Below, one piece after another: positions 34,328-40,575 of a stretch of 64,000 bases of DNA; within the stretch, counting starts at the first letter, position 1, and each line of letters starts with the position of its first letter. Source of the stretch: Chalara sp. BL73 (taxonomy: Eukaryota > Ascomycota > Leotiomycetes > Helotiales); contig CAKJVC010000201.1 in assembly GCA_918026815.1 (NCBI GenBank), positions 62,001-126,000 on the forward strand. The letters run 5' to 3'. Made by a program: the position numbers and the translations under genes. A model generated the notes under the pieces. The model did no database searches. It was not told the DNA's origin and saw nothing but the letters and a program-made list of their open reading frames with translations.

Positions 34328-34335
34328 GTTATTCC
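34328..34335 (+). repeat. Left target-site duplication of the hAT element
   Basis: GTTATTCC, identical to the 8 bp at 40568-40575. Confidence 0.92.
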
Positions 34336-34480
34336 TAGACTGCGCAGAAACCCACGGGGCGGGCCGGGGCCCCCGACCCATGGGACCCCGTGGGTCGGGT
34401 CTTCGAGGCTCGCTTCCCCCGTGGGGTGGGTTGTATATTTTGACCCCAACCCGCGGGACCTCAATGGGGCCCCGATAAGA
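34336..34480 (+). repeat. Left terminal and subterminal arm of the hAT element
   Basis: TIR TAGACTGCG, then a GC-rich arm with repeated CCCACGGGG/CCCGTGGGG units that can pair with each other and with the right arm. Such arms usually bind the BED finger of the transposase. Confidence 0.8.
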
Positions 34481-34792
34481 TTAACTAAATATAGAAACTA
34501 CAGTCAAACTCCTCTACAAGAATGTAGGGCGGACTGGCGGAATTTTAAAAATATACGAGGTATTCTAGTATCGAGATGATTCTTTCCAGTTTTGGCATTG
34601 ATTTTTCTATGTGCACACAGGTTAAACAAGGCTATTTTGTATACTTGTTTTTACAAAAGTACTTGAAATGCAAAGTGGTTGATTAGTATAAAAATTAGTA
34701 TAAAAATTAAACTTCAAATGTTAAATCTAAACATATTGTAATAGAGTGGAAAAAATTGTGAATTATAATAATACAACACTAATATTCTAAAA

Positions 34793-37607
34793 CTAATTTT
34801 TTTTTTGCTTTTTTGACCTGTGAATGCCTATTGGAGTATCCGGCACAATATTACCAATACCAGGAGTCGGAAGTCGAGGCAGCTCTTGACTACTATTACT
34901 AGATAGTTCCCAGTTCGTTGTTTCAATTGACGGTTCGCGGCGATTCCTAAGTGTATTTTGAAACTGAGTAGTCGAAAGTGGCTGATTTTGATGAATTGAT
35001 TGACGTAAAGATTTAGAAATCTTGTAATCCCAGCGTTCTTGAGCACGACGAGTTCGAACTTCTTCGTTTCCTTCTGGTTCTTCATCACTAATATAGTAAT
35101 GATTTTCCCAAAGATCAATTTGATCAAGTTGGACTTCAAGATCATTTTCTCGCGTTTTAATTTCCGTTTCCATATCTTCAAGTGTCATATCCTGGATATT
35201 AATAGTTGAAAATAGTAGATTTTGAAGCTCACGTGTTCGTGAATGTTCAACGAGCGAATGATAAACCAAAAGAAGCGACCGAATAGTTGTCGGTTGAAGC
35301 TGGCCACGGCGATATCCGCATATATCACGTGCAAAACTAAAAGCACGTTCTACTCCAACACCGGCCATCGGGATACAAAGTAAGTCTCTAGCCATTGCTG
35401 ATAAGCCAGGAAGCTGTGTTTCAAGCGATTTCCAAACAAGTAGCGGTGATCGATTATCAGGCTCTAAAAAAACAACACAAAGATTAGTATAAAAATTAGT
35501 ATAAAAAGTAGAATTGTAAACATACTCATAGCCAGCCATTCATCAATTTCAGAAGGAGAAAAGTCATCATCTTTGCGATAAGGGTTCTGAATGTCTCGAG
35601 TAAAGCGCTTGCGACTTAATGCCAATGCTAAAGGGTCGTGATTAACTTCTCGAATTTGAGAAAGTCGGTCAGCATTCGTAGACTTTTCTTTATATTCCGT
35701 ATCGTATAACGACCGAAATTGACGCTCAAATTCTTTGGCCCAATCAACTGTTTTGAAATTAAGCCAGCAGTAATCTTCTTCAAAGCATTTTAGCTTCGAT
35801 TTTGGATCAAGAATTGCTCCGATGCCATACAAACTACCAAGACTACTATATGTTTTGTTATAGTAAGTATCAAGCTTGGCTTCTGCAGCGTTAATCGCAC
35901 CAATTAAATCTTTTACCCAAAGTTGAGCAACAGACTTTTTGGTTAATACTCGGCGAGATTCTTGCAAGTGTTCAAACAATTCATCGTAAATTGATAAAGC
36001 ATAAGGCAATGTTATGCTTGTTGTTTTGCCGATTGTTGTTGTAAAAAAAATTGAAAGGACGTAACAAATCGGCCAAATAGCCAAGTTTTTTCCATTCTAA
36101 TGCAGAAAAAGAAAAAAGGCTTAGCAGGATCGTATGCACTGCAAAATTGATTGATAGACTCTTTAAGACGCAATGCACGAAGAATCATATGCACTGTTGA
36201 GTCCCATCGAGTGCATACATCAATTAACAATGTAAGAACTGGATCATTCGGAGAAGATGAATCTCTGATTTGTTCTTGTTGAACTCTTTGAAATCGATGT
36301 TTCCGCTGTGCACTGGAATTAACAAGAATAGCAAGCTTTCGAATCTAATATAAGATTAGTATAAAAATTAGTATAAAAGTCACGTGTTACATACCTTTGC
36401 TAGTATATATGGAATACCACGTTTGTCACTAGCTTTGATTCTCTCAAGATCAGACAGCTCTTTTTCTGCTACCCAATTCCGAACAAATGTGTCGTTAGTA
36501 GGCCTCAATTGAACAAAGCCCAAAAGTGCTTGAAGACTAAGCTGAATCACATGCGATAAACACGGCACGTGTTGGACTTTCTTTTTTAGAATACTATTAG
36601 CTTTCAAAGCTTCTTGTAAGTATCCGTTGATTTCGAGAACCATTGTAGTATTCGAACTCGCATTATCAGTTGTAATTGAAACAACACGATCAAAAAGATT
36701 GTGCTGTTGAAAAACGTTATTGACAACTTGAGCAAGCGCATTTCCGGAATGAACGTTTACTAAACTTTCAAATCCTATTAATTCTTGACAAAGAACCCAT
36801 GACTTATCAATATAGTGAGCTATTATACCCATAAATGATAGTCTTGTTGTACTAGACCAGCAATCAAGAGAAATTGCAATTTTGCTTCCAGGAACAACAT
36901 TTGAAAGCATGTTCTGTTCAAGTTTGACTGATTGTTCCATTAGTCGATTCTTCATAGTTGTTGCAGAAGGAAGTTCGAAATTTGGATTTTGCATAACAGC
37001 TAGCTTTCTCCATTCAGGATTTTCGACTGCGCGGAAAGAAGTACGAAGTGAAACAATAGTTGCAAGAACCTGGTCGTGAAATGCTTGCTTCGTAAAGATT
37101 GGTTGCTATTAATATTAGACATTATACTAATATTTATACTAATCTACTTACAGAGATAGCGTGAAACATGTCTTCCACTTTTTTCTGCCTTGTATTACTT
37201 TGGCTAGAATAAACAAAGCATTGCCGAGACGCTATATGACCAGACAAAGCTTTTGTGCCGGTATTCCGCGTATTTGGATGTGCGAGAACCTTGTTGCAGT
37301 TTTGACATATGACTTTAGGCTCTCCGGTGATCCGGTGTATTCCTTGATCGAATTGTTTCCAAGCAATAGATTTTCGATTTTGAGATTTCCAATTTAATTG
37401 CTTTACCAAATCAATTGATTGGTTTGCAACTGCTTGAACTGCCCATTGTGTACTTAACCACCATTCAACAAACTTATCGTGATATTCGAGTTCCCATCGA
37501 AAATATAGGTTTTTTGGACCAATTTGCGAAAATAGTAAATTGTCAGAAGTATTTGGCTCAAATGAGCTAAAAGGATCAGAAAAGTCTTGCGAATTGCTTG
37601 ACTCCAT
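34793..37607 (-). CDS. BED-finger hAT transposase (two frameshifts in exon 3)
   Basis: Four exons: 37152-37607, 36395-37105, 35526-36344 and 34793-35463, with introns of 46-62 bp. The start is ATG at 37607 (MESSNSQDF). Exon 1 has a BED-type finger (CQNCNKVLAHPNT, then GHIASRQC). Exon 2 holds the RNase-H-like core: KIAISLDCWSSTTRLSF with the first Asp, VSITTDNASSN with the second, and CLSHVIQL. Exon 3 has DVCTRWDSTVHMI. Exon 4 is the hATC dimerisation domain (MAGVGVERAFSFARD, RSLLLVYHSL) and a basic tail. It cuts and joins the element's TIRs in the nucleus. Exon 3 needs two frame changes, at the A-runs around 36106-36116 and 36045-36052 (plus strand), to read through. Everything else joins in phase. 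The shifts may be sequencing errors or real decay. Confidence 0.85.
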
Positions 37608-37844
37608 AGCAACAAAAGTGTGCAAGTAAAAAAAAAAAGCATCAAATCGGAAAGAAAAAACAAGTATTTAAACACAAGTTAAATTACTACTTCCAAAAAA
37701 TTGTACATATTAAAGGTTATAATTAAACTTCCAAAAATTAATGTAAAATATAATGATTAGTATAAAGATTAGTATAAAATTGAATATATCTGCTTAAAGT
37801 TCCTTGCTTCATTTGCTGTATATACTTAAAAACTACATATACAT

Positions 37845-39149: not shown

Positions 39150-39672
39150 ATTGGAAAGTAACGCAACCGAAAAGTAGGCGTATTTTGCAAATTTCAACTC
39201 GCAAGAACTAGAGCTTCAAAAATTAGTATAAAGATTAATATAATACACCAAAAACACGTACTGCGATAGATGTTTGACTTTGTTCAGATTTAATAAGTTG
39301 GTGCAAAAAGAATGAATGAGGGAAAAGTACGCGTTATCCTGAAAAATAAGGCAGTCGCGTTTTTATGCCTCGATTTTAAGGCATCCAACTACTTTTTTTA
39401 AACCTGACTTCTTTTAACCTTCAATTAAATTTACCAACAACTACACCATACACAAGTATGTATTATATTTATCTTTTTTATATTCTATTTTTATATTAAT
39501 CATTATACTAATTCTTTATAGTCTTCTCGTCGAAATCACAAAGCTATAATTTCAATTTCACGTGTCAATATTCACATTCACCTTCACCTTTTCTGAAAAT
39601 AATTTGCGACTTTGCACAGGTACATATTATTCTGTATTATACTAATATTTATTCTAATCTTAATAGGTTACA
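39150..39672. promoter_or_regulatory. Divergent promoter region with untranslated-leader introns
   Basis: Lies between the divergent unknown cargo gene and the H3-like gene. On the plus strand two leader introns can be seen before the H3 ATG: 39456-39521 (GTATGT to TTATAG) and 39620-39666 (GTACAT to AATAG). On the minus strand one leader intron lies at about 39208-39261. All three carry the paired TACTAAT motif. Confidence 0.6.
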
Positions 39673-40222
39673 ATGGCACGTACCAAGAAAATAGCTACCA
39701 AATCTGCTCGCAAACCCTCTGCCAAAACCTCTGCCAAAACCTCTGCCAAAACCTCTGCTAAAACCTCTGCAAAAGCTGTACCAAAGAAGAAATATCGATT
39801 GAAACCTGGCAGTAAGTTGATTAATATAATAATTAGTATAAAACTAACATTTAAACGTAGCCAAAGCACTTAGAGAAATCAAACGATACCAAAAAAGCAC
39901 TGAGCTTTTAATCCCAAAAGCTCCATTTACTCGACTAGTTAGGGAAATAATGTATGATATTACGTCTCGACACGCATTTCGCATTCAACTTAGTGCTTTA
40001 CAATGTCTCCAAGAAGCCGCAGAATCTGCTTTGGTAGCTGAGTTCGAGCGTAAGTTATTTCATATAAATACATTATACTAATATTTATACTAATATTACT
40101 TTAAAGTCACAAATCTTGCCGCAATCCACGCTAAGAGAGTTACTATTCAAGTAAAGGATATGCATTTGGTTCAAAGAATGAGAGAGGGAATGACGGGCTA
40201 CAAGTACCCAGGCCGGTGTTAA
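39673..40222 (+). CDS. Divergent histone H3 (CenH3-like) carried by the transposon
   Basis: Three exons, 39673-39811, 39861-40049 and 40107-40222, join in phase to 147 residues (canonical H3 has 135 after Met removal). The tail starts ARTKKIATKS, so K4, K9 and S10 sit at H3 positions while R8 is Thr. The normal mid-tail is replaced by a 12-bp tandem repeat encoding KTSA units. The fold follows: YRLKPGTKALREIKRYQKST, LVREI, LQEAAESALVAEF, then NLAAIHAKRVTIQ. Loop 1 (DITSRHAFRIQLSALQC) is two residues longer than in H3, and LQEAAE fits CenH3, both CENP-A-like features; the Trp often found in CenH3 loop 1 is absent. FED before TNL is FEL here. The C-terminus extends to YKYPGRC. It should enter nucleosomes with H4. 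Whether at centromeres or at transposon DNA is unknown. Splice sites are canonical. Confidence 0.88.
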
Positions 40223-40432
40223 AGAATCAAACGCAGTTCATACAAAGGAAATGGGTTAAGCAATGGAGTTATTAAAGGTATACACGCTAGCGATAGGGCG
40301 CTAAGCACATAATAAAATTCACAAACCAAAATTTTAATACGTTTATGTCGCGTAGCTTTTGATTAGTAGACTTATTAGTATAACTTCTCTAACTGTACAG
40401 CAACTATTGTAATGTCACGTGTAAATGTAATG

Positions 40433-40567
40433 GGTGCTTGGCACCCCATCAAGACCCCATGGGGTGGGGTGGGTGCTTTTGATAGACCCCAACCCATGGG
40501 GTGGGACCCCGACGGGTGGGGTCAAGTAGGTGAAAACCCGCCCCGTGGGACCCCAGTTCGCAGTCTA
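40433..40567 (-). repeat. Right terminal and subterminal arm of the hAT element
   Basis: Read from 40567 inward: TAGACTGCG, then CCCACGGGGCGGG and further CCCATGGGG-type units. Abruptly GC-rich next to the AT-rich element body. Confidence 0.8.
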
Positions 40568-40575
40568 GTTATTCC
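40568..40575 (+). repeat. Right target-site duplication of the hAT element
   Basis: GTTATTCC, identical to the 8 bp at 34328-34335. Confidence 0.92.

What the first reader, a model, noticed from the sequence alone, without database searches (positions are those of the whole stretch)
34328..40575. hAT transposon carrying its own histone H3 variant gene
A 6.2-kb element with perfect 8-bp target duplications, matching TIRs and a BED/hAT transposase also contains a spliced, undamaged histone H3-like gene and a second cargo gene. Cargo is unusual for hAT elements, and I know of no described hAT that encodes a core histone. A mobile element that brings its own nucleosome component could mark its chromatin, escape silencing or favour certain insertion sites. 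Boundaries and genes are seen directly; the role is inference.
Basis: partly seen in the sequence, partly recalled or inferred. Interest (0 to 1): 0.95.

Follow-up and report, generated by a model that had tools for sequence, protein, structure and literature searches.

The report
Fungal jumping gene carrying a histone
A fungus carries about thirty copies of a jumping gene that holds, besides its own transposase and a second conserved gene, a gene for an altered histone H3; the altered histone is predicted to build chromatin that would be hard for the host to silence.

Summary
Window 34336-40567 is a 6,232-bp hAT transposon with 9-bp inverted ends, a perfect 8-bp target duplication and three genes: transposase (frame-shifted in this copy), a 370-aa gene of unknown function, and an intact spliced histone H3 variant. 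It is not a chance join: the genome holds at least 30 transposase loci, 29 also with the H3 gene, and 25 copies with both ends have perfect 8-bp duplications (24 distinct). Old copies are RIP-mutated.

It is not the first such element: a hAT with transposase, central ORF and H3-like gene was described in Pyrenophora tritici-repentis (2013), and H3-carrying hATs in Pseudocercospora and relatives (2019).

New here: a probable helotialean host; an H3 variant in a distinct clade; a second gene conserved in two Helotiales; and a 22-bp motif present 15 times, once in every coding intron, readable also in introns of two relatives. The H3 tail has R8T, T11A and G12R, in the stretch that Neurospora's H3K9 methyltransferase needs. 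I propose anti-silencing (inferred, untested). Against it: 12 of 14 young copies as assembled have a broken H3 frame, and old copies were RIP-mutated.

The parts
34328..34335 (.). target-site duplication, left (GTTATTCC)
   Evidence: sequence
34336..34344 (+). terminal inverted repeat, left (TAGACTGCG)
34345..34470 (.). G+C-rich subterminal region with short GGGGT/ACCCC-type repeats shared with the other end
   Evidence: families D6, D10, D11, D12
34793..37607 (-). hAT transposase gene, exons 37607-37152, 37105-36395, 36344-35526, 35463-34793; frame-shifted in this copy, 884 aa in three sister copies
37845..39149 (-). second gene (cargo2), exons 39149-39117, 39066-38741, 38694-38445, 38394-38255, 38208-37845; 370 aa, no Pfam family
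39673..40222 (+). histone H3 variant gene, exons 39673-39811, 39861-40049, 40107-40222; 147 aa
34682..34703 (-). 22-bp motif TTATACTAATNNTTATACTAAT, intergenic
35483..35504 (-). 22-bp motif, transposase intron 3
36355..36376 (-). 22-bp motif, transposase intron 2
37122..37143 (+). 22-bp motif, transposase intron 1
37756..37777 (-). 22-bp motif, between transposase and cargo2
38225..38246 (-). 22-bp motif (1 mismatch), cargo2 intron 4
38412..38433 (+). 22-bp motif (2 mismatches), cargo2 intron 3
38703..38724 (-). 22-bp motif (1 mismatch), cargo2 intron 2
39077..39098 (-). 22-bp motif (2 mismatches), cargo2 intron 1
39222..39243 (-). 22-bp motif (1 mismatch), between cargo2 and H3
39491..39512 (+). 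22-bp motif (1 mismatch), upstream of H3 (possibly in a leader intron)
39637..39658 (+). 22-bp motif (1 mismatch), just upstream of the H3 start codon
39820..39841 (-). 22-bp motif (1 mismatch), H3 intron 1
40073..40094 (+). 22-bp motif, H3 intron 2
40362..40383 (-). 22-bp motif (2 mismatches), downstream of H3
40440..40558 (.). G+C-rich subterminal region, right
40559..40567 (-). terminal inverted repeat, right
40568..40575 (.). target-site duplication, right (GTTATTCC)

Best explanation
This is a multi-copy hAT transposon that carries a transposase gene, a conserved gene of unknown function and a spliced histone H3 variant gene, and the variant is predicted to enter nucleosomes that the host's H3K9 methyltransferase would modify poorly, which would likely shield the element from silencing. 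Shown: the anatomy, the copies, the motif array, the grouping of the variant and the substitutions in its tail. Inferred: that the variant is made, pairs with H4 and is deposited. Also inferred: that deposition is concentrated on the element because the second gene's product or the transposase binds the 22-bp motif, and that altered residues 8, 11 and 12 weaken K9 methylation and so HP1 and DNA-methylation silencing. The effect could be local or, as for Neurospora K9 mutants, spread over the genome.
For: Copies: 30 transposase loci, 29 with H3 and 30 with all or part of cargo2; 25 copies with both ends and perfect 8-bp duplications. The histone core is conserved between species (6 differences in 104 positions against Bisporella P0001), and six variants lie on one side of a branch (100/99). 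The AlphaFold model of P0001 (mean pLDDT 68.5, pTM 0.45) has the four H3 helices and matches nucleosomal H3 chains. Window and Bisporella tails both read ARTK..ATKSARK, i.e. by ungapped numbering R8T, T11A, G12R, with K4, K9 and S10 kept. In Neurospora R8A and G12P abolish and T11A greatly reduces DIM-5 activity in vitro (PMC3248561 section 7); some tail substitutions are semi-dominant for loss of DNA methylation (abstract). The 22-bp motif occurs 15 times inside and never elsewhere in the window (expected 0.01), 385 times in 25 elements and 0 times in 26,615 bp of flanks, and can be read in the matching introns of relatives P0123 and P0124.
Against: As assembled, only 4 of 26 copies examined have an open H3 frame, 3 an open transposase and 1 (C133) all three (four copies, partial or masked, were dropped before the count). 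Of 14 young copies, 10 share a one-base gain in the H3 gene and 2 others a one-base loss, so copies with a broken H3 frame may have moved, unless these are homopolymer assembly errors. The older copies were RIP-mutated, so the element has not escaped genome defence as a whole. The tail keeps K9 and S10. In the wider clade the tail varies: Talaromyces keeps R8, and Tricladium, Pseudogymnoascus and Clarireedia lack the ARTK start. No expression, H4-binding or methylation data exist here; the host's methyltransferase was not examined; binding of the motif by any element protein is a guess.
Confidence: 0.35

Rival explanations
1. The H3 gene is passive cargo: a host H3 was captured once and is carried along without use to the element (transduplication, the reading of the two earlier papers).
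For: Earlier papers read their elements so. 12 of 14 young copies as assembled have a broken H3 frame. The tail varies in the wider clade.
Against: The histone core is the same at 98 of 104 positions between two species and the six variants group together rather than with separate host H3s. Both H3 variant and cargo2 homologues were found in Tricladium varicosporioides. The gene has introns, so it is not a retrocopy, unlike the Pseudocercospora fijiensis case.
Confidence: 0.3
2. The H3 variant serves transposition or target choice, for example a CenH3-like nucleosome that loosens element ends or steers insertion.
For: Loop 1 is two residues longer than in H3, as in CENP-A. The three genes occur together in the complete copies.
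Against: In the tree the variant does not join the two CenH3 rows used. The 24 distinct duplications show no evident shared sequence (by eye, not tested formally). Copies with broken H3 frames appear to have moved.
Confidence: 0.15
3. The variant acts in trans as a poison of host heterochromatin: mixed into nucleosomes everywhere, it lowers H3K9 methylation genome-wide, and one intact copy is enough.
For: [quoted passage not shown] It would explain why many copies can lose the frame.
Against: K9 itself is kept; the amount of the variant is unknown; RIP still acted on older copies.
Confidence: 0.15

Closest known systems
H3L-carrying hAT of Pyrenophora tritici-repentis (Manning et al. 2013, PMC3538342, section 20 read)
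   [quoted passage not shown] about 5.6 kb; many near-identical copies; H3L is neither H3 nor CenH3 by their alignment; ESTs for H3L there.
   Different: Different fungal class (Dothideomycetes against a probable Leotiomycetes host). Homology of H3L and central ORF to the genes here could not be tested, as I had no Ptr sequence. No intron motif array is mentioned in the section read. They report a short chimeric form, not seen here.
H3-carrying hAT of Pseudocercospora fijiensis and five relatives (Dhillon et al. 2019, PMC6710886; abstract, Results and first part of the Discussion read)
   Same: hAT with 8-bp duplications carrying H3-like sequence at many copies; RIP.
   Different: In P. fijiensis 9.5 kb with one or two intronless H3 copies, all RIP-inactivated, and no other domains or repeats found; the hAT consensus sequences showed no similarity to that of Ptr. 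Here the gene is spliced and open in some copies.
hAT superfamily (Ac, Hermes)
   Same: 8-bp duplication, short TIRs, Dimer_Tnp_hAT domain, repeats near the ends.
   Different: A typical hAT carries the transposase alone (recalled). Here there are two further genes, and the 22-bp motif lies through the whole element in introns and gaps, not only near the ends.
CENP-A / CenH3
   Same: Histone fold with a loop 1 two residues longer than H3; KDM in place of KDI near the C-terminus, similar to RDM in S. pombe cnp1.
   Different: H3-type ARTK start; not grouped with the two CenH3 rows in the tree; FELTN and LVQ in place of FEDTN and LAR.

Membership tests
hAT superfamily | 8-bp target-site duplication | tested here: met
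   25 of the 25 copies with both exact ends (of 30 held) have perfect 8-bp duplications, 24 distinct
hAT superfamily | short terminal inverted repeats | tested here: met
   TAGACTGCG/CGCAGTCTA found as a pair in 25 of 30 copies; the other five lack one or both ends in what was fetched
hAT superfamily | hAT C-terminal dimerisation domain | tested here: met
   PF05699 38.5 bits, cut-off 21.4
hAT superfamily | RNase H-like catalytic domain | tested here: inconclusive
   PF14372 19 bits, below its cut-off of 27; catalytic residues not mapped
hAT superfamily | N-terminal BED zinc finger | tested here: inconclusive
   no Pfam BED match; a Cys/His pattern is visible (recalled motif)
H3L-carrying hAT of Pyrenophora | transposase, further ORF and H3-like gene between TIRs | tested here: met
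   description
H3L-carrying hAT of Pyrenophora | common descent of H3L and of the central ORF | not testable with these tools
   no Ptr element sequence among the listed hits (one search listed 120 of 7,647)
canonical histone H3 | conserved tail and grouping with host-type H3 | tested here: not met
   tail altered; separate group 100/99
CenH3 | longer loop 1 | tested here: met
   two residues longer than H3
CenH3 | grouping with CenH3 in a tree | tested here: not met
   only two CenH3 rows; the host CenH3 candidate could not be fetched
CenH3 | centromere location | not testable with these tools
   no ChIP data

The most novel reading that the evidence does not exclude
A lineage of fungal hAT transposons keeps a permanent chromatin kit: its own histone H3 variant with a tail that H3K9 methyltransferases cannot use, a dedicated partner protein, and a 22-bp recruiting site written into every intron, so that the element wraps itself in non-silenceable nucleosomes wherever it lands.
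Probability: 0.2. Interest if true: 0.93.

Novelty: new variant of a known kind. Interest (0 to 1): 0.64.

Why it matters
If the H3 variant works for the element, this is a mobile element that answers silencing by supplying a different nucleosome, a counter-defence of a kind I have not seen demonstrated. The tail differs from H3 at residues whose importance for H3K9 methylation is already measured in Neurospora, so the idea can be tested directly with peptides and a reporter strain. The motif in every coding intron gives a second handle: a binding assay would show whether an element protein recognises it. It also suggests that the H3 genes in fungal hATs, described so far as captured host genes, may in some lineages be old, shared parts of the element.

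Tried and rejected
Within-genome selection test rejected: copies differ by up to about 20%, but 88-98% of the substitutions in 11 old copies are C:G to T:A, i.e. RIP, so dN/dS among copies would be meaningless.

Protection of the motif from RIP rejected: its C lies in an ACT context that mutates little anywhere (motif 6 of 69, elsewhere 25 of 144 ACTA sites in C33, C3b and C122 together).

Motif as a plain branch site rejected as the whole story: it contains CTAAT, but 3 of 9 coding introns hold it in antisense and 6 copies lie outside coding introns.

SUMO-interacting motif in cargo2 (DIIVISDDSD; motif recalled) noted but not used: absent from the two homologues as annotated. AlphaFold of cargo2 homologue P0122 gave pLDDT 46, no basis for a fold search; the PDB profile search gave one match at E 2.2, Pfam and PHROGs none. 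Two viral-contig scans gave no relatives. Paper searches were seen as listings, except for the three papers cited.

Not done: genome-wide count of the 22-bp motif and retrieval of the host's own H3 and CenH3 genes, because the genome machine did not answer.
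Full report
What is there. The element lies at 34336-40567, between GTTATTCC duplications. It holds a transposase gene and a second gene on the minus strand and a histone H3 variant gene on the plus strand. The transposase is a hAT by its dimerisation domain. The window copy's own transposase is frame-shifted by two homopolymer-length differences; three sister copies read through at 884 aa.

Not a chance join. In the same genome (58.66 Mb, 199 contigs) the transposase DNA matches at 30 loci (32 rows, C114 and C33 being split), cargo2 at 30, and H3 in 33 rows. 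Those 33 are 29 of the 30 transposase loci (C62 and C114 split into two rows each), a piece at a contig end (C135) and a weak short match (C85) (the tool calls such counts lower bounds). The transposase locus without H3, C53, matches only the first 4,221 bp of the element. Of 30 copies held (29 put together plus the window), 25 have both exact ends, 6,198-6,254 bp apart, and all 25 have perfect 8-bp duplications; 24 are distinct, and C17 and C18 share one, which suggests a larger duplication. The other five are cut by a contig end, masked, truncated or interrupted.

History. Fourteen copies are nearly identical to the window copy. Thirteen of them show 1-6 substitutions and C133 shows 38, plus a few small insertions or deletions, mostly one base at homopolymers. 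Eleven older copies differ by 255-1,089 substitutions, of which 88-98% are C:G to T:A, least often at CpG: RIP. C6, C53, C62 and C114 were left out of this comparison. The family is thus old in this genome, and an unmutated lineage has recently multiplied or arrived anew (inference).

State of the genes. Of 26 copies examined (the same four left out), H3 is open in 4 (window, C51, C133, C168), transposase in 3, cargo2 in 8, all three in C133 only. Ten of 14 young copies share a one-base gain in H3 and two others have a one-base loss, at homopolymers. Whether these are real or assembly errors cannot be told here.

The histone. 147 aa. The model of its 90%-identical relative P0001 from Bisporella (mean pLDDT 68.5, pTM 0.45) has the four H3 helices and matches nucleosomal H3 chains. 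Loop 1 is two residues longer than in H3; FELTN and LVQ replace FEDTN and LAR. With relatives from Bisporella, Tricladium, Pseudogymnoascus, Clarireedia and Talaromyces it lies on one side of a branch with support 100/99 against 12 other rows, among them two CenH3s. The six were picked from hits by their shared look, so this test is not blind, and the tree is unrooted. In this genome tblastn with a typed Neurospora-type H3 found one 98% canonical H3, one second gene (C66; 73% and 63% in two pieces) that I take for CenH3, a 30-residue match inside a long unrelated frame (C11), and otherwise element copies. The tail reads ARTKKIATKSARK: by ungapped numbering R8T, T11A, G12R, with K4, K9 and S10 kept; Bisporella shares the three changes.

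The second gene. The search of 5.8 billion proteins, which needs shared 5-residue words, gave only two homologues, from Chlorociboria (44%) and Tricladium (41%), 45-46% identical in the three-way alignment; both are Helotiales. Tricladium has relatives of both cargo2 and the H3 variant, the latter on three contigs, which fits a related mobile element, but their context could not be seen. The host is probably helotialean (inference).

The motif. TTATACTAATNNTTATACTAAT occurs 15 times with up to 3 mismatches, all inside the element (expected 0.01 in the window), none overlapping coding sequence although 68% of the element is coding; each of the nine coding introns holds exactly one. In 25 complete copies there are 385 matches inside and none in 26,615 bp of flanks, part of which is masked in C7d; the copies are close kin, so they are not independent. 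Two transposase relatives, 51% and 54% identical over about half of the query, are predicted straight through an intron, and there the translation spells the motif at the same intron positions as introns 2 and 3 here: IILIFILT in P0123 and YTNIYTN in P0124. These were the only two matches of such patterns in 24,960 residues of 129 proteins. The start of the Tricladium H3 variant also reads SIILIF a few residues before MAKTK, as if part of the motif stood upstream of its start codon (partial match, outside the pattern). The motif is therefore likely kept by selection.

Mechanism. I favour anti-silencing. In Neurospora R8A and G12P abolish and T11A greatly reduces DIM-5 activity, and some tail substitutions act in the presence of normal H3 (PMC3248561, abstract and section 7). 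The variant carries changes at all three positions, though not the same substitutions at 8 and 12. Deposition at the element through the motif is a guess. Passive cargo remains nearly as likely because of the broken frames.

Prior work. Manning et al. 2013 described a 5.6-kb hAT with transposase, central ORF and H3-like gene in Pyrenophora tritici-repentis and asked whether altered chromatin helped elements amplify (section 20 read in full; Summary seen as a passage). Dhillon et al. 2019 described RIP-inactivated H3 in hATs of six Mycosphaerellaceae, intronless in P. fijiensis, where they found no further domains or repeats. Searches for such an element in fungi and in Helotiales listed these two and none that I recognised as a further report (listings only). 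So the kind is known; the host group, the grouping of the variant, the conserved second gene and the intron motif are what this case adds.

Noticed in passing
window 11489-18412 and 18495-25427: A roughly 7-kb direct tandem duplication, the nine compared blocks 99-100% identical, with a 268-aa ORF in one copy and a 266-aa ORF in the other; real or an assembly duplication.
   Followed up: no
old element copies C122, C3b, C33 against window 34336-40567: RIP here prefers C after a pyrimidine and not before G: TCA, TCT, CCA and CCT are 93-99% mutated in coding parts, AC and GC contexts (outside CpG) 21-34%, unlike the CpA-led pattern of Neurospora (recalled).
   Followed up: partly
window 34345-34470 and 40440-40558: G+C-rich subterminal regions; non-coding CCC and CCG sites are far less mutated in old copies than coding ones (17% against 97%, and 2% against 35%). 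That these sites lie in the subterminal regions is my inference.
   Followed up: no
window 42705-45293, minus strand: A single-exon 862-aa ORF that looks like an MCM3 helicase gene by eye, 2.1 kb from the element, so the insertion lies among genes.
   Followed up: no
copy C53 (G000:C53:15500-22099): Truncated copy that matches the element (99.7%) up to its base 4,221 and then stops, without H3.
   Followed up: partly
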